From the NCBI RefSeq assembly GCF_002875945.1, contig NZ_MCZK01000006.1, positions 1 to 64,000 on the forward strand: a stretch of 64,000 nucleotides of DNA, read 5' to 3'. Position numbers and translations under genes: made by a program. This stretch comes from Vibrio lentus. GTDB lineage: Bacteria; Pseudomonadota; Gammaproteobacteria; Enterobacterales; Vibrionaceae. The first letter of the stretch is position 1; each line of letters begins with the position of its first letter. The notes beneath the pieces were generated by a model. That model ran no database searches. It was given only the letters and a program-made list of their open reading frames with translations, and was not told the DNA's origin. Below, one piece after another: positions 5,376 to 60,729 of the stretch.

Positions 5376-8300
5376 CTAATCTTTTGGTGGCGCTGGCGCC
5401 AAGACTTCTCGGTTACCGTTATGTCCTGGAGCACTGACAATACCTTGAGCCTCTAATTGCTCGACAATTCGTGCGGCACGGTTGTAGCCGATTTTGAATC
5501 GACGTTGTACACCAGAAACTGAACCTCGGCGTGAATGAACCACGTGTTCGACAACTTGATCAAACAGAGGATCGACTTCTTCATCACCTTCCATCTTCTC
5601 ACCCGGCAATAGTGTTTCTGGGGTTTGGTCGCCGTTAGTAATCTCTTCAATATAGTTTGGCTTACCACGAGCTTTCCAGTTGTTCACGACCGCGTGCACA
5701 TCATCATCAGATGCAAATGCGCCGTGTACACGAGTTGTGTGGCTTGAACCCGGTGGTAAGTACAACATATCACCCATACCAAGCAATGACTCTGCACCAC
5801 CTTGGTCAAGAATGGTTCGAGAGTCTGTTTTGGTCGACACGGTAAAGGCAACACGTGTCGGGATGTTTGCTTTGATCAGACCCGTAATAACATCCACCGA
5901 AGGACGTTGAGTGGCTAAGATCAAGTGGACGCCAGCCGCACGCGCTTTCTGCGCCAAACGAGCAATCAGTTCTTCAACTTTCTTACCCACTACCATGATT
6001 AAATCGGCAAATTCATCGACGACAACCACGATGTAAGGCAGTTTTTCCAACAATGGTGCTTCAGGGTCCATGCTGTCGCCCGGCTTCCACAGTGGGTCAT
6101 GAATTGGGTGCCCAGCTTCCGCGGCCATCTTCAATTTGTCGTTGTAGCCTTTGATGTTACGAACACCGAGCGCCGACATCAGCTTGTAACGGCGTTCCAT
6201 TTCACCAACACACCAGCGAAGGGCGTTAGACGCATCTTTCATGTCGGTAACGACTTCAGACAACAGGTGTGGAATACCTTCATAAATAGACAATTCCAAC
6301 ATTTTCGGGTCAATCATGATGAAACGAACGTCTTCAGGTGATGCCTTGTAAAGCATACTCAAGATCATCACGTTCACACCTACCGACTTACCAGAACCGG
6401 TGGTACCCGCGACAAGAACGTGTGGCATTTTCGATAGGTCAGCAATAACTGCTTCGCCTGCGATGTCTTGTCCTAGAACAACCGTCGTTGGTGATTTAGC
6501 CTCTTGGAACTGAGGGCTAGCAACGACATCAGAGAAAAACACCGTTTGACGGCTCATGTTCGGCAGTTCTAAGCCAACATAAGGTTTGCCCGGTATTACC
6601 TCGACGACACGCACTGCCAATGCAGAAAGTGAGCGTGCTAAGTCCATTGAAAGACCAGAGATACGACTTACTTTCACACCCGGAGCAAGGTCTAACTCGA
6701 ATCGAGTGATAACTGGACCAGGGAAAATATCAACCACATCTGCTTTGATTTTGTAATCGGCTAATTTAGATTCAACCAAACGAGCGATTGCTTCGAGCGC
6801 ATCACGATCAATGAAGGTTTCACGCTTTTCAGGGTGGAACAACAATTCAAGCGTTGGCAATGGTTCTGCTGGTTTAGGCAAGTTAACATCTTGCTGAACG
6901 AGGAACGGGTTTTGCGCTGCAGCCATGTTTGCTTGTGCTTCAGAGACAATGTTTTGGAATGCAGCTACGTCTTGGTCTGGATGTACAGGTTCTTCTTCTG
7001 TTACCTCTTCCCAAGGAAGATCAACAACTGGCTCTTGGTTTTGCTCAGTCGTTTGCGTCAGCTCTTGTTCGTAAGATGACGGAGCAAGTGGCTCTTCGTC
7101 ATTATCAACAGGCTCAGCATCTAGCTCTGAATTAGGTTCAAAACTTTGCTCTTCCGTTGTATCGAAAGACGATGAGAATTCTTGTGGTGCTTCTTCTATT
7201 TCACCCATTGGCGAAGCGTATAGAGATTCTGGTTGAACATCTTCCGCATCGAACTCGTTATTTACTTCTGGTGAGCTATCCATGACTGGCTCAGCAGTTT
7301 CAACTACCGTTTCAGTAGGATTAACTGCGGTTTGCTCATTCTGCATGTATTGCTGATACGCGATCTGAGATTCATGCGCGTCAACCTGCTCCTGCTCAGC
7401 AAGATCATCTTCATACATAGCGGCATTTTCTAACTGCTCAATAGTCGCGTTCAATTGTTTAGAACGTTCTACACCTTCTTCTAAGGGCTCTTCTGGTGCT
7501 TGGTAAACGGGTGCAGCAGGAATAGGTTCTTGCTCTACGTGTTGAGGCTGAATCTGAGGCTGTTCTTGGACGGGCGCTTCTTGCTTAGCCGGCGCATCAA
7601 CTGGCATATGAATATTGTAATGACGCTTCGGCGATACAGTATTGTCTAATGCATTCGCAGCATCTGAAGAGTCATTGGTCGCAGAGAAGCTCAGTGCAGG
7701 ATCAAGCTGATCTTGCTCTGTTGATTCTTTATTGTCTTCTATAGCAGGGACATCGCGGTAAGTTGGCTCTTGATGCTGCTGATGACGTTCTTCGATTAAA
7801 TCTCGGTCTGCCGACTCTCTTAATTGTGGCTCAAGCAACTCTTGGTCTTCACCACGCGCTTTATTAACAGCAGAGGTAAACAGCTTAATCGCACATTCGC
7901 CCAACCATTCAACGATGCTTAGCCAAGAAATACCCGTTAATAGAGTAAAGCCAGCACCCCATAAGAAAAGAAGAACCAATGTACTGCCAAGAACGTTAAG
8001 CGTTGGCAATGCAAGACTTGTTAATACGTCACCAACCACGCCGCCTGATGAAAAGTACCAGATATCATCAAAGTTAATATCAGCTAGACCACAGCTGGTA
8101 AGAATAAGAACGGTTAAGCCAAGTAAGCGAGTACCCCACAACATGAAGTCGATTTGTTCGTCTTCATTACGTTTGCGGAACAACACCCATGCAGCCACAG
8201 TCACTAATATAGGTAGCGGGTAAGCCAGTGAACCAAACACAAAGAAAAGCGTATCCGCCAACCATGCACCTAGGTAGCCACCCGCATTCTGAATGTCACC

Positions 8301-8495
8301 ACCCCACGCCGTTTGCGACCATGATGGGTCTGCAGGACTAAAAGTTAATAACGCAACGGCAAGTAGAATAGAGAAGAGAACACCCAAAATCAGGCTGCAC
8401 TCTTTGAGACGTTGAGAACCATTCAAACGAGGAGACTGAGGCTCTTCACTCGTTTTAATGATTGTTTCTACTTTATTACTGCTCTGCTTGAACAT
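5376..8495 (-). CDS. ftsK: DNA translocase FtsK
   Basis: FtsK is the septal DNA pump that clears chromosome termini and activates XerCD recombination at dif. Residues about 30-195 contain four membrane segments that anchor it at the divisome. Residues about 220-560 are a low-complexity linker rich in Glu, Gln and Pro. The motor follows, with Walker A GTTGSGKS near 695, Walker [10 protein letters not shown] near 823 and the [12 protein letters not shown] strand. The C-terminal gamma winged-helix domain (about 965-1030, [22 protein letters not shown]) reads KOPS motifs. At 1039 residues it is shorter than E. coli FtsK (1329), entirely through a shorter linker. It lies upstream of lolA and downstream of lrp, in the usual gammaproteobacterial order. 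Confidence 0.98.
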
Positions 8496-8658
8496 AAACC
8501 AACTTAATAATTAAACGGGATAAAAACATAGCGAACGGCACGAGCCATTCGTTTTCATGAAACTACTGTTGATTTAACCATATCAAACAGAAAAACCCAA
8601 TTCCAGAAAGCAAGAAAGCGGAACAAATGTCCGCTTTCTTTCATTTCACCAATTATGA

Positions 8659-9153
8659 TTAACGAGTTTTAATCACAAGTTGATTAGTTTGTTTCACTTC
8701 TTCCATTACAACGTAAGTACGAGTGTCGTTTACGCCTGGTAGACGCAGTAACGTATCACCCAGCAACTTACGGTAAGCACCCATGTCCGATACACGTGTT
8801 TTAAGAAGATAGTCAAAATCACCCGACACTAAATGACACTCTTGGATGTCATCCAGTTTCTGCACAGCGGTGTTGAATTGTTCGAACACATCTGGCGCAC
8901 CACGGTTCAAAGTAATTTCAACAAACACTAAAAGTGAAGCATCTAGGTACTGTGGGTTCAGCAATGCTGTGTACCCAGTAATGTAACCTTGACGTTCTAA
9001 ACGACGAACACGCTCAAGACATGGAGTGGGAGAAAGTCCTACTCGTTTTGAGAGTTCAACGTTTGAGATACGACCGTCTTTTTGCAACTCATTAAGAATG
9101 TTGCGGTCAATACGATCTAGTTCCTTGGACGGCTTCTTATAATTGTCTGCCAT
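8659..9153 (-). CDS. lrp: Leucine-responsive regulatory protein
   Basis: Lrp is a global feast/famine transcription factor controlling amino-acid metabolism. The 164 residues match the family. An N-terminal HTH domain at about 12-60 (DRNILNELQKDGRISNVELS, then the recognition helix region SPTPCLERVRRLE) is followed by the RAM ligand-binding domain (VFVEITLN, CHLVSGDFDYLL, GVNDTRTYVVM). It is transcribed divergently from ald with a 156-bp AT-rich gap, a typical arrangement in which an Lrp/AsnC protein controls an amino-acid dehydrogenase. The near identity to E. coli Lrp in the HTH supports true Lrp rather than a specific AsnC paralogue. Confidence 0.96.
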   Translation of the reverse strand: MADNYKKPSKELDRIDRNILNELQKDGRISNVELSKRVGLSPTPCLERVRRLERQGYITGYTALLNPQYLDASLLVFVEITLNRGAPDVFEQFNTAVQKLDDIQECHLVSGDFDYLLKTRVSDMGAYRKLLGDTLLRLPGVNDTRTYVVMEEVKQTNQLVIKTR

Positions 9154-9309
9154 TTTTTATTCCACCTTATTACTTCCTTGCAAAAAAATATACTACAACT
9201 TTTTAATATTCGGTATCAAATTCTATCTGAACCTATCTATACTAGATATTAATTCGAAAGAATTACCCTACACATAGATAAAACAACCATAATATAATAA
9301 GGAGTCAGG
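9154..9309. promoter_or_regulatory. Divergent lrp/ald promoter region
   Basis: This very AT-rich 156-bp gap between divergent lrp and ald includes ATACTAGATATTAATTCGAAAGAATTA-like dyad tracts. A Shine-Dalgarno sequence AAGGAGTC precedes ald. Lrp binding here is inferred from gene arrangement; no unambiguous Lrp consensus was assigned. Confidence 0.5.
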
Positions 9310-10434
9310 ATGATCATTGGCGTACCTAAGGAAATCAAGAACCACGAATACCGCGTTGGTATGACCCCAGCTAGCGTGAGAGAACTAATCTCACATAGTC
9401 ACCAAGTTTTTGTTGAAACCAATGCCGGTACTGGTATCGGTTTTTCAGACGATGATTACATCGCTGTAGGCGCATCCATTCTTCCTACTGCTGCTGACGT
9501 TTTCGCGAAAGCAGAGATGATTGTAAAGGTTAAAGAACCTCAAGCTGTCGAGCGAGCTATGCTTCGTGAAGGGCAAATATTATTTACCTATTTACACCTT
9601 GCACCAGATTTTCCACAAACGGAAGAGCTAATCAAGAGCAAAGCTGTCTGCGTAGCCTATGAGACTGTAACAGATAATATGGGTCGCTTGCCACTATTAG
9701 CACCAATGTCTGAAGTCGCTGGTCGCATGTCTATTCAAGCAGGTGCACAAACACTAGAAAAATCTAACGGTGGTTGTGGTCTTCTTCTTGGCGGCGTTCC
9801 TGGTGTTGAGCCAGCGAAAGTTGTTGTAGTTGGCGGCGGCGTTGTTGGTGCTAACGCAGCACGTATGGCTGTTGGCCTTCGCGCAGACGTAACCATCCTT
9901 GATCGCAACGTAGATACTCTTCGTCGTCTTGATGAAGAATTCCAAGGTCGCGCAAAAGTGGTTTATTCTACTGAAGACGCTATTGAGAAGCATGTTCTAG
10001 AAGCAGACCTAGTGATTGGTGCAGTACTAATCCCAGGCGCAGCCGCTCCTAAACTTGTTACAAAAGATCACATCGCTAAGATGAAGCCAGGTTCAGCTGT
10101 TGTTGATGTTGCAATCGACCAAGGTGGTTGTTTCGAAACTTCACACGCGACAACTCACGCCGATCCAACTTACATCGTTGATGACGTAGTTCACTACTGT
10201 GTTGCTAACATGCCAGGTGCCGTTGCTCGTACTTCTACTTACGCACTAAACAATGCAACACTTCCTTACATTGTTAAGCTAGCGAACAAAGGCTACCGCG
10301 AAGCACTTCTATCTGATGAAGGTTTCCTAGAAGGTCTAAACGTAATCCACGGTAAAGTGACTTGTAAAGAAGTTGCAGAGAGCTTTGACCTAGAATACGT
10401 AGCGCCTGCAGAAGCAATCGCAATGTTTAACTAG
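9310..10434 (+). CDS. ald: Alanine dehydrogenase
   Basis: This enzyme interconverts L-alanine and pyruvate plus ammonia with NAD+, allowing alanine catabolism or ammonium assimilation. The 374 residues match the hexameric family. The start ([20 protein letters not shown]) is the classical AlaDH/PNT N-terminus. The nucleotide-binding glycine-rich loop [19 protein letters not shown] lies near 170-187, and [15 protein letters not shown] and [23 protein letters not shown] follow. The start ATG has a good Shine-Dalgarno sequence (AAGGAG). It is divergent from lrp, which probably regulates it in response to alanine or leucine (inference), and is monocistronic with a strong terminator. Confidence 0.98.
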
Positions 10435-10497
10435 TGATGTAGTGACTAACTGAGCGTAAAATTTTCTCGTTGAAGCGTTCAGTTACAACACACATTA

Positions 10498-10530
10498 AAA
10501 AGCCAGTCCGACATCGTCGAACTGGCTTTT
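10498..10530 (+). terminator. ald terminator
   Basis: 15-bp stem with one mismatch (10498-10512 with 10516-10530, AAAAGCCAGT core), 3-nt loop, T6 tract. It may also serve the convergent methyltransferase gene. Confidence 0.85.
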
Positions 10531-10597
10531 TTGTATCTATACCTATTGTTCAATAGCGGTAGGTAACGAGCTTTCTTATACGCTCGTCAACTTTGAT

Positions 10598-11800
10598 CTA
10601 ACGTTTGTTCTTAACACCATGAATCAGGAGGTTTCGAGGGGTAACACTGCGCTCACAAAACTCTTCTATCGAAGCTTCATAACCTTGTTCTTGCAGATAG
10701 ATAGCACGATCTAAGGCCAACCATATCTCTAATGGCCGTCTAAATACTTGTTGGACTAAACTCAACTTCTCCATTTCCCAGAAGAGCGTCTCGCCTTGAG
10801 CAAAATAGGATTCAAAGTCGATATCCGAACCAAGTGTTATCTCTTTCACTTCAGCTGCCCACTGGCAAAAGGATCTAAAACCCTCAGACAACTCTGATTT
10901 TTTGATGCTCGGTACTGGAATGTATTCATCGATATTAAGTTCGGCTTTGAGCAATTTACTGAAGCCCAAACGATAACTCATCTCTAATTGACGATGCCTC
11001 TTTACTCTTTCACCGCCAGTGACCGTTTCTTGAAGTGGAATTCTTAAATCACTCTTGCTCAATACTAATACAGAGCTTTTCGCGACAGATGACATCGCTT
11101 GATAGGTTTCATCACGAATAAGATGGTAGCAACATGGGGAAATGGTCACTGCTGGAAGCCCATGTGATACAGACTTTTTCACTAACTCGACATGAAGGTC
11201 GCCACAAGCATGGAGAGCGACAGCATGTTGGTTTGAATTAAACACATCACCTGCGCTTTCTGAAAAAGCATCGCCTTGAACAAAGTTCATCTCTAGCTTG
11301 TGATGATCTGCAATCTGTTGGCCGCTATCACATAGTGACTGTTGCCACTCAAAACTGGTGACTTTTTGATTCGATTGTTTAGCCAAGATTCGACCGAGAA
11401 AACCTTTGCCTGAACACCACTCCAGCCACTCTTGTCCTTGGTGATGCTCGAGAGAAGCCTCTCCCATCGCAACAATTTGTTGTAGCTTTCTGCCGGGAAT
11501 ACCATCGGCAGTTCCGCGCGGAAGATCGAGCCCAACAAGCGCAGTATGGTTGAACTGGATATTTTGGTTGGCTTTCTCTAACTGGGGAATGAAACGCGTA
11601 AGCTCAGCTAGCAAGTCTTGCGGTTGTTCTTTGAGAGTCTGAATTCTCTCGATACTCAAACTATCCAACCAATCAACAAGAGGACGATTCACATCAGCCC
11701 ATGGCTGTTGCTGAGTTTGACATAGGTGAAAAGGCTCTGAACGCCAATAGACTTGGTGCTCTAACAAGAATGAGTCGAGAATTGTAAATCGTGAATGCAT
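10598..11800 (-). CDS. SAM-dependent methyltransferase (Methyltransf_32-like)
   Basis: This is a 400-residue class I methyltransferase of unknown substrate. The SAM-binding motif I is EWCSGKGFLG (127-136). It is followed by a conserved HACGDLH (197-203) and by SPCCYHLI (221-228), the hallmarks of the Methyltransf_32 family, which is related to eukaryotic GSTCD-type proteins. The N-terminal 100 residues and C-terminal 150 residues have no clear motif. The family is often annotated only as methyltransferase, and its substrate (RNA or protein) is not known to me. It lies alone on the minus strand between convergent ald and cysB. Confidence 0.75.
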   Translation of the reverse strand: MHSRFTILDSFLLEHQVYWRSEPFHLCQTQQQPWADVNRPLVDWLDSLSIERIQTLKEQPQDLLAELTRFIPQLEKANQNIQFNHTALVGLDLPRGTADGIPGRKLQQIVAMGEASLEHHQGQEWLEWCSGKGFLGRILAKQSNQKVTSFEWQQSLCDSGQQIADHHKLEMNFVQGDAFSESAGDVFNSNQHAVALHACGDLHVELVKKSVSHGLPAVTISPCCYHLIRDETYQAMSSVAKSSVLVLSKSDLRIPLQETVTGGERVKRHRQLEMSYRLGFSKLLKAELNIDEYIPVPSIKKSELSEGFRSFCQWAAEVKEITLGSDIDFESYFAQGETLFWEMEKLSLVQQVFRRPLEIWLALDRAIYLQEQGYEASIEEFCERSVTPRNLLIHGVKNKR

Positions 11801-45483: not shown

Positions 45484-45552
45484 GTAGCTGAGAAATTGAT
45501 AGATATTTAGTGAAAATATTGGGACTTATTACCCAATAGTGGTAACTATTTG

Positions 45553-45587
45553 AACAAGGGCAACTTTTATCAAGGGTTGCCCTTGTT
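45553..45587 (+). terminator. MCP terminator
   Basis: Perfect 12-bp stem AACAAGGGCAAC (45553-45564) with 45576-45587, followed by T-run. Confidence 0.88.
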
Positions 45588-45681
45588 TTTTATGATCTTT
45601 GTCATTATATGATTATTAAGGCTTGCTGCTTCCCGTTTTTTTCTTTCACCTTTATGAGCGAGCCGCTATTAAGGAATTTAT

Positions 45682-46848
45682 ATGGCTGTTCATGTTGGCA
45701 TTATCGATCAAGACCCCATTCGCTTGATCACCCCACTACTCGATAACCGAACGATCAGCACTCATATCGTGTTTATCGGCGACAAGAATCAAGTCAGTAT
45801 GTACCAACGCTTAGACAGCGTTTTACAGAAGCGCGACATTACCAGTGAGTTTTTCGAGATTCCAACCCTCGTAAATACATCTGCGATTAAAGCCTCTATC
45901 CAAAACCTTGCCGAAGACCTCAAAGCTCGTGGAGAAGAAGTGAAACTCAACGCGAGTTGTGGCCTTCGTCACCGCCTACTTTCTGTGTACGAAGTGTTCC
46001 GCACTTACCACTGGCCAATCTTTGTGGTTGAACCGAACAGTGACAAGCTGTGCTGGTTATACCCAAGTGGTAAAGAAGACGCACAAGTACAAGACCGTAT
46101 TACCATCGACGACTACCTAACGGTGTTTGGTGCTCGTGGTGAATTCAGCGATGTACAGCTGTCTCCGCAACTTGACCAGAAACTGTATGAACTGGGTGAA
46201 CGTTGGGCAAGTAACGCATTAGAGTTAGGTCCAGGCCTCGCAACATTGAACTACCTTGCAACAACCTGCCGTAAAGAACAGAAGCTCGATGTCGGCTTGT
46301 CTGAAAAACAACAAGGCTACCGTGAACTCAACATGCTACTGAGTGATTTAGTAGAAGCGAAGATTGCCACTTATGACAATGGTATTTTGACGTTTGCCAA
46401 TGAAGATGCACGACGTTTCTCAAACGGTGAATGGCTAGAGACTCTGGTTCACAGCACAGTTAAACAAATCCAAGATGACATGCCGACCATCCAAGACCGT
46501 TCTTTGAATGTTCAAGTTTACCGCCAATTAGGTGAGCGTGAGGTTCGTAATGAGCTTGATGTTGCTTCTGTCGTGAACAATAAGCTGCACATCATCGAAT
46601 GTAAGACCAAAGGCATGCGTGATGATGGTGATGACACCTTGTACAAGCTGGAATCGCTGAGAGACCTATTAGGCGGCCTACAAGCACGTGCCATGCTAGT
46701 GAGCTTCCGCCCTCTTCGTCATAATGACATCACACGAGCAGAAGACCTTGGCCTTGCGTTGATTGGTCCTGACGAATTGAAAGATCTGAAAACACATCTA
46801 ACGGCATGGTTTACCGCAGCCGGTGGTGATGAAGATTTAGAGTGCTAA
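45682..46848 (+). CDS. DUF1887 CARF plus PD-(D/E)xK nuclease-like protein (Card1/Can2-type)
   Basis: This 388-residue protein belongs to the DUF1887 family whose V. cholerae member VC1899 has a known structure (1XMX, from memory). The N-terminal half (about 1-145) is a Rossmann-like CARF domain. The C-terminal part (about 245-370) is a PD-(D/E)xK nuclease: GEWLE (E253), NELDV (D293), and IIECKTK (E306, K308), followed by a conserved GGLQARAMLVS strand. CARF-nuclease relatives Card1 and Can2 are activated by cyclic tetra-adenylate made by type III CRISPR systems. Here no cas gene or CRISPR array lies within 64 kb. The CARF loop that usually reads N-x-T-G-G-T-K is N90-A-S-C-G-L-R-H. A strong terminator follows, so it is monocistronic. 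Activity as nuclease is inferred. Confidence 0.85.
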   Translation: MAVHVGIIDQDPIRLITPLLDNRTISTHIVFIGDKNQVSMYQRLDSVLQKRDITSEFFEIPTLVNTSAIKASIQNLAEDLKARGEEVKLNASCGLRHRLLSVYEVFRTYHWPIFVVEPNSDKLCWLYPSGKEDAQVQDRITIDDYLTVFGARGEFSDVQLSPQLDQKLYELGERWASNALELGPGLATLNYLATTCRKEQKLDVGLSEKQQGYRELNMLLSDLVEAKIATYDNGILTFANEDARRFSNGEWLETLVHSTVKQIQDDMPTIQDRSLNVQVYRQLGEREVRNELDVASVVNNKLHIIECKTKGMRDDGDDTLYKLESLRDLLGGLQARAMLVSFRPLRHNDITRAEDLGLALIGPDELKDLKTHLTAWFTAAGGDEDLEC

Positions 46849-46891: not shown

Positions 46892-46927
46892 AAAAAGGCG
46901 AATGACGATTAAGTCACTCGCCTTTTT
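46892..46927 (+). terminator. Terminator of the DUF1887 gene
   Basis: About 14-bp stem (46892-46905 with 46913-46927) with one mismatch and a T6 tract. Confidence 0.85.
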
Positions 46928-60272: not shown

Positions 60273-60701
60273 ATGCCAGAAGAGTTTGATAGACAGAATA
60301 GTTTTGGATGGATGATCAATGTGATCGCCAACAAAGCGACCAAAGATTTCGACCTTGAGTTAAAGAAACACGGCTTAACCATCGCATTGTGGCCAACCTT
60401 GATGTGTTTATGGGAAGAAGAAGGGGTTACCCAGCGTGATATTGCCGCGAAGTCTAAAGTAGAAAACTCAACAACAACACGAACATTAGATAAGTTGGAA
60501 AAGCTTGAACTGGTAGAACGTAGAGCCGACCCACACAGCCGCCGCTCTTTTAGAATCTACCTAACAGAGAAAGGTAAAGCACTTGAAGAAGTGTTAATAC
60601 CCATCCCAGTTAGGTTAAATGAAGAACTGATGGCAACGCTTGATGCACAAGAGCAACAACAGATGATCGGCTTACTTAAGAAAATGGTCGCCGCTGTCTA
60701 G
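60273..60701 (+). CDS. MarR-family transcriptional regulator
   Basis: The 142-residue MarR/SlyA-type repressor has a winged HTH (GVTQRDIAAKSKVENSTTTRTLDKLEKLELVERRADPHSRRSFRIYLTEKG, about 50-105) flanked by dimerisation helices. It is 17 bp after cytochrome b561. A typical MarR regulator represses the operon that carries it, so it likely binds the 23-bp palindrome upstream. The ligand is unknown; oxidative or nitrosative stress is a reasonable guess from its cytochrome targets. Confidence 0.9.
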   Translation: MPEEFDRQNSFGWMINVIANKATKDFDLELKKHGLTIALWPTLMCLWEEEGVTQRDIAAKSKVENSTTTRTLDKLEKLELVERRADPHSRRSFRIYLTEKGKALEEVLIPIPVRLNEELMATLDAQEQQQMIGLLKKMVAAV

Positions 60702-60729
60702 CTCGATAGCTCGATAGCTCGATAGCTCG
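60700..60729. repeat. 8-bp tandem repeat AGCTCGAT
   Basis: Three full and one partial copies of AGCTCGAT begin at the MarR stop codon. The copy number is likely variable (slippage). Confidence 0.8.

What the first reader, a model, noticed from the sequence alone, without database searches (positions are those of the whole stretch)
45682..46848. CARF-nuclease of the Card1/Can2 type with no CRISPR system in the window
The protein combines a CARF-like N-terminus with an intact-looking PD-(D/E)xK set (E253, D293, E306, K308). In type III CRISPR immunity such proteins are switched on by cyclic tetra-adenylate. Here no cas gene or array is present within 64 kb, and the neighbours are core genes, as for V. 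cholerae VC1899. The CARF loop is N90-A-S-C-G-L-R-H instead of the usual N-x-T-G-G-T-K, so it may bind a different ligand. It could be a CRISPR-independent, nucleotide-gated nuclease, a vestige, or a core-genome stress effector.
Basis: partly seen in the sequence, partly recalled or inferred. Interest (0 to 1): 0.62.

Follow-up and report, generated by a model that had tools for sequence, protein, structure and literature searches.

The report
Core CARF-nuclease of Vibrionaceae, CRISPR-free
Nearly every sampled member of the Vibrio family carries a relative of a CRISPR defence nuclease that has become an ordinary, strongly conserved chromosomal gene, with its cutting site intact and an altered signal pocket, so it probably answers to a signal of the cell that has not been identified.

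Summary
Window 45682-46848 (+) encodes a 388-aa CARF + PD-(D/E)xK protein, orthologue of V. cholerae VC1899 (PDB 1XMX). The window's genome (99.99% complete) has no Cas1, no RAMP protein and no SMODS cyclase; its two Cas10-model hits are GGDEF proteins.

The 'vestige' option fails. A match is in 147 of 150 Vibrionaceae genomes; type III RAMP proteins are in 10 of 150. In 125 distinct proteins (98 from genus Vibrio) all five catalytic residues are unchanged, and the altered loop NASCGLRH is nearly invariant. Pairwise dN/dS is 0.017 (nuclease part 0.006), close to housekeeping neighbours. The clade (support 100/100) lies among relatives many of which are type III-linked, so it looks like a domesticated CRISPR effector.

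Published assays (PMC7969007, passages read) found no DNA nicking by VC1899 and weak RNase activity not regulated by cA4, and suggested a degenerate enzyme 'cast adrift'. The conservation argues instead for a working enzyme with another, unidentified activator.

A covarying 5' leader hairpin (45620-45664) was also found. Orphan status and changed pocket were already published; the family-wide core status, the selection and the leader were not met in the library searched.

The parts
45682..46848 (+). CDS, 388 aa CARF-PD-(D/E)xK nuclease, VC1899 orthologue
45688..46134 (+). CARF domain, residues 3-151
   Evidence: PF23400 matches residues 15-145, barely over its cut-off; 1XMX homology
45706..45723 (+). 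strand-1 loop D9-Q10-D11-P12-I13-R14 of the ligand pocket (S-x-Q at these places in 14 of the 16 RAMP-linked relatives compared)
   Evidence: D9, D11, R14 in 125 of 125; table
45949..45972 (+). strand-4 loop N90-A-S-C-G-L-R-H97 (G-G-[T/A/N]-K in 14 of the 16 RAMP-linked relatives compared)
   Evidence: N, A, S, G, R, H 125 of 125; C93 124; L95 123; the fast-evolving L055, not among the 125, has NASCGHRK
46387..46845 (+). nuclease domain, residues 236-388
   Evidence: PF09002 at residues 240-379; dN/dS 0.0062 over residues 236-382
46438..46440 (+). catalytic E253
   Evidence: 125 of 125
46552..46560 (+). catalytic E291 and D293 (the pair mutated in the published VC1899 variant)
   Evidence: 125 of 125 each; PMC7969007
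46597..46605 (+). catalytic E306-C-K308
   Evidence: 125 of 125 each for E and K
45620..45664 (+). 5' leader hairpin: arms 45620-45627 and 45657-45664, loop 29 nt
   Evidence: covariation in 92 Vibrio leaders, seven pairs tested; minimum-energy fold of the leader; RNAalifold predicted no pair
45583..45611 (+). possible promoter read by eye: TTGTTT 45583-45588, 17 nt, TATATG 45606-45611, ending 8 nt before the hairpin
   Evidence: sequence; a TATAT was found in 60 of 86 scored leaders and ends 9 nt before the arm in 46 of them; NOT listed by the promoter scan
45552..45588 (+). terminator-like hairpin after the upstream chemoreceptor gene
46892..46927 (-). terminator-like hairpin between this gene and the convergent udp gene

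Best explanation
It is a former type III CRISPR ancillary nuclease of the Can2/Card1 kind that was taken into the core chromosome of a Vibrionaceae ancestor and has since been kept as an ordinary chromosomal gene, in most genomes in one copy. SHOWN by computation: core distribution, absence of CRISPR machinery in this genome, unchanged catalytic and nearly unchanged pocket residues, strong purifying selection, monophyly, type III-linked relatives. INFERRED from solved homologues: a dimer whose two CARF domains form a ligand pocket; ligand binding moves the nuclease domains together so that they cut nucleic acid, most likely RNA (VC1899 has weak RNase and no plasmid-nicking activity in print). 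INFERRED: the activator is not cA4 but an endogenous molecule made without Cas10, read by an acidic pocket with the loop NASCGLRH. The leading but unproven candidate is an RNA-derived end or oligonucleotide produced by stress, because the CARF domain of RtcR, which works outside CRISPR, binds tRNA halves ending in 2',3'-cyclic phosphate. My likelihoods: functional and selected 0.95; a nuclease in vivo 0.85; gated through the CARF pocket by a non-cA4 ligand 0.65; that ligand an RNA end or fragment 0.2.
For: A match in 147 of 150 Vibrionaceae genomes and 12 of 13 genera; RAMP proteins in 10 of the same 150, all 10 among the 147, so 137 carriers have no RAMP match. Catalytic residues unchanged in 125 of 125 distinct proteins, pocket loops nearly so. 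Median pairwise dN/dS 0.0165 whole, 0.0256 CARF, 0.0062 nuclease; in a second set CARFnuc 0.0187 against hinT 0.0137, ndh 0.0138, lpoB 0.0161, udp 0.0212, MCP 0.0223, MATE 0.0264, COG3014 0.0333, ZntA-like 0.041. Gene order: udp next in line downstream in 20 of the 31 core-orthologue loci that I fetched with wide flanks; hinT, lpoB and ndh upstream in 10 of the 10 of these that belong to the window's genus and in none of the 21 others. Vibrionaceae clade 100/100 in two trees, joined to its sisters at 91/87 and 100/100 with eight rows left out. One sister (G243) and one outer, long-branched relative (second copy of G113) share a contig with a GGDD Cas10 and RAMPs. cA4 failed to activate VC1899: PMC7969007, passages. 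RtcR ligand: PMC7790460, passages.
Against: No activity of this protein has been measured, and the orthologue was nearly inactive in vitro, so 'nuclease' rests on conserved residues. No ligand or synthase is known. The pocket residue list comes from a published model of cA4 placed in VC1899, not from a bound structure; two of its ten residues, Q10 (110 of 125) and D34 (72 of 125), do vary, and the pocket's excess conservation over the CARF average is modest (permutation p 0.02). One fast-evolving orthologue (L055, 41%, genome G001), not among the 125, keeps the catalytic residues, D9, D11, R14 and R96 but changes Q37, L95, H97, V115, E117 and P118. The two type III-linked relatives with the same D-x-[D/E]-P strand carry Cas_VVA1548 genes; if these are the Csx16 family, found cA4-specific in PMC12409355 (passages; that the two names mean one family is recalled), an acidic pocket need not exclude cA4. 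An orphan Csx15 still sequesters cA4 (PMC13148439, passages), so orphans do not always change ligand. RtcR is in only 9 of 150 Vibrionaceae, so nothing links the gene to RNA repair. My AlphaFold model was poor (mean pLDDT 57.2).
Confidence: 0.6

Rival explanations
1. [quoted passage not shown]
For: VC1899 nearly inactive in vitro and not cA4-responsive (PMC7969007, passages); no CRISPR system in this genome. Three of the 147 family matches are partial (G016, G057, G084), so some copies may be broken or cut by assembly.
Against: 147 of 150 genomes, catalytic residues 125 of 125, dN/dS 0.006 in the nuclease part, whole gene close to hinT, ndh and lpoB. A drifting gene would decay.
Confidence: 0.03
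2. Constitutive, ungated housekeeping nuclease (for example in RNA processing or decay), whose CARF domain is now only a dimerisation or protein-binding module.
For: Weak RNase activity without cA4 dependence is reported for VC1899. The nuclease part is under stronger selection than the CARF part (0.0062 against 0.0256).
Against: The two CARF loops that line the pocket in relatives are nearly invariant (D9, D11, R14, N90, S92, R96, H97 all 125 of 125), which dimerisation alone would not obviously need; but permutation p is only 0.02.
Confidence: 0.2
3. Stand-by effector for mobile defence systems: it answers cyclic nucleotides made by type III or CBASS cassettes that come and go in Vibrio genomes.
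For: Such cassettes do occur: RAMPs in 10 of 150, SMODS cyclases in 14 of 150 Vibrionaceae (12 over the cut-off). In two Vibrionaceae genomes the type III locus has its own DUF1887 nuclease besides the core copy (G113, G099).
Against: The gene is kept at housekeeping strength in a family where most sampled genomes have neither. VC1899 did not answer cA4. Other cyclic nucleotides are not reported for it in the passages that I read.
Confidence: 0.12
4. Sensor for an undescribed endogenous cyclic or SAM-like nucleotide made by a core Vibrionaceae enzyme; the acidic pocket would suit a ligand with a positive charge, as SAM-AMP has (charge recalled).
For: Acidic D9 and D11 invariant in 125. A type III messenger other than cyclic oligoadenylate exists (SAM-AMP: titles and starts of abstracts in the search listing).
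Against: No core synthase was looked for beyond Cas10 and SMODS; SAM-AMP is made by Cas10, which this genome lacks. Charge matching is speculation.
Confidence: 0.15

Closest known systems
VC1899 of Vibrio cholerae (PDB 1XMX), DUF1887
   Same: Orthologue: aligned over residues 1-383, E 6e-226; same catalytic set, same numbering, same loop; orphan.
   Different: No difference in kind. The window protein is the same gene in a V. splendidus-like species.
Can2 (SthCan2 7BDV, TsuCan2) and Card1 (6WXW)
   Same: CARF plus PD-(D/E)xK architecture, E-x-D and E-x-K motifs.
   Different: Not next to type III genes; D-x-D where 14 of 16 RAMP-linked relatives have S-x-Q, and CGLRH where 14 of 16 have GG[T/A/N]K; VC1899 not activated by cA4 (PMC7969007).
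DUF1887 proteins of type III loci in G243 (L060) and G113 (L058)
   Same: Near the Vibrionaceae clade in the tree; D9-x-[D/E]-P strand; intact nuclease motifs.
   Different: On one contig with Cas10 (GGDD), RAMPs, Cas_VVA1548, Cas_NE0113; loops NASTGSHH and NVTQGNIG; 37% and 29-30% identity to the window protein. L058 is a very long branch.
RtcR CARF domain
   Same: Precedent for a CARF domain with a host-made ligand outside CRISPR (PMC7790460, passages).
   Different: A transcription activator, not a nuclease; in only 9 of 150 Vibrionaceae genomes.

Membership tests
DUF1887 / Card1-Can2 nuclease family (PF09002) | Card1_endonuc domain over the curated cut-off | tested here: met
   214.4 bits against 26.4
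DUF1887 / Card1-Can2 nuclease family (PF09002) | N-terminal CARF domain | tested here: met
   PF23400 25.1 bits against 24.6, narrow; supported by the near full-length match to 1XMX
DUF1887 / Card1-Can2 nuclease family (PF09002) | PD-(D/E)xK catalytic residues intact | tested here: met
   E253, E291, D293, E306, K308 each 125 of 125
Type III CRISPR ancillary effector Can2/Card1 | Genomic link to a type III CRISPR system | tested here: not met
   0 RAMP, 0 Cas1 in own genome; Cas10-model hits are GGDEF-type proteins
Type III CRISPR ancillary effector Can2/Card1 | cA4-binding residues of Can2 (Ser, Thr, Lys, Tyr as listed in PMC7969007) | tested here: not met
   By the paper's own equivalences these are D9, D34, R96, V115, which the window protein has; only R96 keeps the charge
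Type III CRISPR ancillary effector Can2/Card1 | cA4-activated nuclease activity | not testable with these tools
   For the orthologue VC1899 reported absent (PMC7969007, passages)
VC1899 orthologue group (core gene of Vibrionaceae) | Monophyly and conserved place in the chromosome | tested here: met
   Clade 100/100; udp next in line downstream in 20 of 31 core-orthologue loci fetched with wide flanks
Pseudogene / vestige | Relaxed selection, broken frames or lost active site | tested here: not met
   dN/dS 0.0165; 147 of 150 have a match, three of them partial and one divergent (41%); active site 125 of 125

The most novel reading that the evidence does not exclude
A whole bacterial family runs a CRISPR-free signalling pathway in which a domesticated CARF nuclease, read through a nearly invariant acidic NASCGLRH pocket, is switched on by an undescribed endogenous nucleotide or RNA-derived signal, with its own synthesis in Vibrio controlled through a conserved 5' leader hairpin.
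Probability: 0.35. Interest if true: 0.82.

Novelty: new variant of a known kind. Interest (0 to 1): 0.58.

Why it matters
CARF domains are treated mainly as sensors of CRISPR messengers. A CARF nuclease that is core in a family (12 of 13 genera sampled), under housekeeping selection, and whose orthologue is deaf to cA4 says that this sensor fold has been recruited to ordinary cell biology, and that the Vibrionaceae should contain its ligand. That turns an open question (what do orphan CARF proteins sense?) into a direct experiment: pull the protein out of its native host and identify what is bound. It also speaks against the published suggestion that VC1899 may be a degenerate leftover.

Tried and rejected
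Vestige: rejected on conservation and dN/dS. Hidden type III system in the genome: rejected. SOS, CRP or PhoB control: the LexA, CRP and PhoB patterns tried were found in 0 of 125 upstream regions. Leader hairpin as a regulon element: in 21 genomes the arm pattern was found 22 times forward and 27 times reverse against 8 and 5 for the reversed pattern, the gene's own leader included and palindromic sites counted on both strands; I did not look at the other places and claim no regulon. Leader hairpin as a DNA operator with fixed spacing: disfavoured, because the loop varies from 20 to 51 nt; not excluded. RNAalifold found no pair on the same alignment and the single fold is not unusually stable (z -0.66); the case rests on compensatory changes. 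My first stem search showed only a modest excess over simple shuffles (7.7 against 6.4). Mobility: plasmid collection 1 weak match (Aeromonas media, 30% over 49% of the query), phage collection none. The AlphaFold model from a shallow alignment was poor, so I ran no fold search; 1XMX serves as the structure. One Rfam gathering search of the window gave nothing. PF22335 (Cas10 palm) rang in 120 of 150 Vibrionaceae; the two own-genome hits and two others that I read from the weak end look like GGDEF proteins, while five of the six strongest or stronger ones read have GGDD, so I used RAMPs to count type III systems. mfd, meant as a further dN/dS yardstick, lay outside the loci and gave no value.

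Rows dropped before counts: one search used 64 orthologue rows (one of them a second copy in G129). One search used 125 distinct proteins, 98 of them from loci of the window's genus; it left out ten divergent relatives, among them the Vibrionaceae orthologue L055 (41%, some pocket residues changed), identical copies, and loci L094-L123 and L204 upwards. The 80 named loci are the best 80 of 366, so biased to close relatives. Of the 28 other class genomes with a match I tested 20 for RAMPs: 12 have them on the same contig as the nuclease gene or a fragment of it, 4 elsewhere, 4 none; 8 were not tested. Of the 7 order genomes outside the family I tested 6: 4 on the same contig, 2 none. dN/dS pairs are not independent and were limited to dS 0.1-1.

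Full report
WHAT IS THERE. The frame at 45682-46848 on the plus strand is a 388-residue protein. Its C-terminal part is the Card1-type endonuclease domain (PF09002, E 5e-64) and its N-terminal part a CARF domain that only just passes its Pfam cut-off (25.1 against 24.6 bits). The first solved homologue is 1XMX, V. cholerae VC1899, matched over residues 1-383; Can2 and Card1 follow. The nearest named genomes belong to the Vibrio splendidus group (V. tasmaniensis, 98%). In the window the gene seems to stand alone: a terminator-like hairpin closes the upstream chemoreceptor gene (45552-45588) and another lies between it and the convergent udp gene (46892-46927).

NO CRISPR IN THE GENOME. The own genome (5.68 Mb, completeness 99.99) has one PF09002 gene, no RAMP protein, no Cas1 and no SMODS cyclase. 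Two weak Cas10-palm matches are GGDEF-type proteins without GGDD. I did not search the whole genome for repeat arrays.

A CORE GENE. A match is found in 147 of 150 Vibrionaceae genomes from 12 of 13 genera; two of the three without it are small genomes (2.1 and 2.6 Mb), three of the 147 are partial matches (G016, G057, G084) and one is divergent (G001, 41%). RAMP proteins, the mark of type III systems, are in 10 of the same 150, all of which also have a match to the nuclease. In the order as a whole 25 of 247 genomes have a match, and 18 of these are Vibrionaceae; in the class 29 of 369, the own genome included. Among 31 core-orthologue loci that I fetched with wide flanks, udp is next in line downstream in 20 (only homologues of window genes were mapped); ndh, lpoB and hinT precede it in all 10 loci of the window's genus and in none of the 21 others.

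UNDER STRONG SELECTION. In 125 distinct Vibrionaceae proteins, 98 of them from the window's genus, E253, E291, D293, E306 and K308 never change; neither do D9, D11, R14, Q37, N90, A91, S92, G94, R96, H97, V115 and E117; C93 changes once, L95 twice, P118 once. Q10 (110 of 125) and D34 (72 of 125), which the published model also places around the pocket, do vary. One fast-evolving orthologue left out of the 125 (L055) keeps the catalytic residues, D9, D11, R14 and R96 but not Q37, L95, H97, V115, E117 or P118. Median pairwise dN/dS is 0.0165 for the whole gene, 0.0256 for the CARF part and 0.0062 for the nuclease part. In a second set with the neighbours as yardsticks it is 0.0187, against 0.0137-0.0161 for hinT, ndh and lpoB and 0.0212-0.041 for udp, MCP, MATE, COG3014 and the ZntA-like ATPase. 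These are pairwise values, not independent, but they do not fit a decaying gene.

WHERE IT COMES FROM. In two maximum-likelihood trees the Vibrionaceae proteins form one clade with support 100/100. Their sisters are the proteins of G243, G288, a second copy in G015 and, G178 (91/87 for the joint clade; 100/100, where eight rows were left out, among them G113's second copy, G178 and L055). G243's gene shares its contig with RAMPs and a GGDD Cas10, and so does the second copy of G113, a very long branch placed as an outer member of the same group; G288, G178 and G015 have no RAMP. Of 20 class genomes tested, 12 have the nuclease gene (or a fragment) and RAMPs on one contig, 4 have RAMPs elsewhere, 4 have none (8 others untested). 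The simplest history is a type III effector that settled in a Vibrionaceae ancestor. Of the 16 RAMP-linked relatives compared, 14 have S-x-Q in strand 1 and 14 have GG[T/A/N]K in the strand-4 loop; the two exceptions are the G243 and G113 proteins, which already have D-x-[D/E]-P, so that change may be older than the loss of CRISPR.

WHAT IT DOES. PMC7969007 (passages read) assayed VC1899: no nicking of supercoiled plasmid, very little RNase activity and not regulated by cA4; the pocket is described as largely acidic and hydrophobic; the authors suggest that it may be a degenerate enzyme cast adrift from CRISPR. PMC6981274 (passages), a year earlier, had thought the cA4 site likely to be conserved. 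The conservation found here speaks against 'degenerate' but agrees with 'not cA4'. My reading is a latent nuclease, probably acting on RNA, opened by a host-made ligand. That a CARF domain can read a host-made RNA ligand is known for RtcR (PMC7790460, passages), but RtcR is in only 9 of 150 Vibrionaceae and nothing ties the two together. The activity, the ligand and the gating are inferences.

A LEADER HAIRPIN. Just upstream of the ribosome-binding site lies an inverted repeat, GGCTTGCT (45620-45627) and AGCGAGCC (45657-45664). In 92 distinct Vibrio leaders (from 98 loci) the seven pairs tested are formed in 95.9% of cells; six of the seven show changes on both sides that keep the pair (12 cells; shuffled mean 1.6, 0 of 500 shuffles as high), and sliding the partner by 1-3 columns drops pairing to 9-49%. 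All six inner pairs are standard in 80 of the 86 rows (of 92) with letters at all of them. The loop varies from 20 to 51 nt, which speaks for RNA rather than for an operator of fixed spacing. Against it: RNAalifold predicts nothing on the alignment and the window's own fold is not exceptionally stable (z -0.66), though the minimum-energy fold contains this hairpin; related sequences can exceed the shuffles without structure, as the tool warns. A TATAT box, found in 60 of the 86 rows and 9 nt before the first arm in 46 of them, suggests that the transcript starts at the hairpin; the promoter scan did not list it. The other genera were not aligned for this.

WHAT IS NEW. Already in print: the protein family, the structure, the orphan status, the altered pocket, the failure of cA4 (PMC7969007, passages). 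PMC4012209 (passages) notes that each CARF family has members not linked to CRISPR. Not met in the held library: the family-wide core status, the selection on active site and pocket, the leader. Searches: VC1899, 1XMX with CARF (13), DUF1887 (14), CARF with Vibrio, orphan and nuclease (43), Card1 with Vibrio and CARF (44), CARF domain with CRISPR-independent (45), Vibrionaceae with CARF and core genome (83); passages of PMC12825302, PMC8211822, PMC1462988, PMC3974666, PMC12669027 and PMC11229360 add nothing on this point. Two likely sources, Makarova 2020 on CARF classification and Rostol 2021 on Card1, are not held, so part of this may be printed there.

VERDICT. A real, conserved, CRISPR-free CARF nuclease; a known protein whose published label 'may be degenerate' is probably wrong; ligand unknown.

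Noticed in passing
window 45620-45664; 92 Vibrio leaders of alignment A2: Covarying hairpin in the 5' leader of the gene, loop 20-51 nt; the Rfam gathering search of the window gave no match.
   Followed up: partly
L225 (G113:C84:75000-94900) and L224/L060 (G243:C45): Type III loci with a GGDD Cas10 of about 600 aa, RAMPs, Cas_VVA1548, Cas_NE0113 and an acidic-pocket DUF1887 nuclease. Their messenger would tell what the D-x-[D/E]-P pocket reads.
   Followed up: partly
L056 (G129:C7) and L057 (G129:C6): One Vibrionaceae genome has two copies of the core nuclease, at 63% and 69% identity to the window protein, both with the NASCG(L/I)RH loop; no RAMP in the genome.
   Followed up: no
L055 (G001:C1:63000-82800): A 2.6-Mb Vibrionaceae genome has a fast-evolving orthologue (41%) with the loop NASCGHRK and the catalytic residues kept.
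   Followed up: no
L061 (G288:C10:23500-43300), 8249-10985: An orphan DUF1887 relative directly follows a gene that by eye resembles a TraG/VirD4-like coupling ATPase, in a genome without RAMPs; not tested against a family library.
   Followed up: no
150 Vibrionaceae genomes: The Pfam Cas10 palm model PF22335 rings in 120 of 150 genomes; both own-genome hits and two others that I read (L080, L092) look like GGDEF proteins, so it should not be used alone to call Cas10.
   Followed up: partly
window 60699-60729: Perfect tandem repeat of an 8-base unit TAGCTCGA, 3.9 copies, just after an ORF.
   Followed up: no
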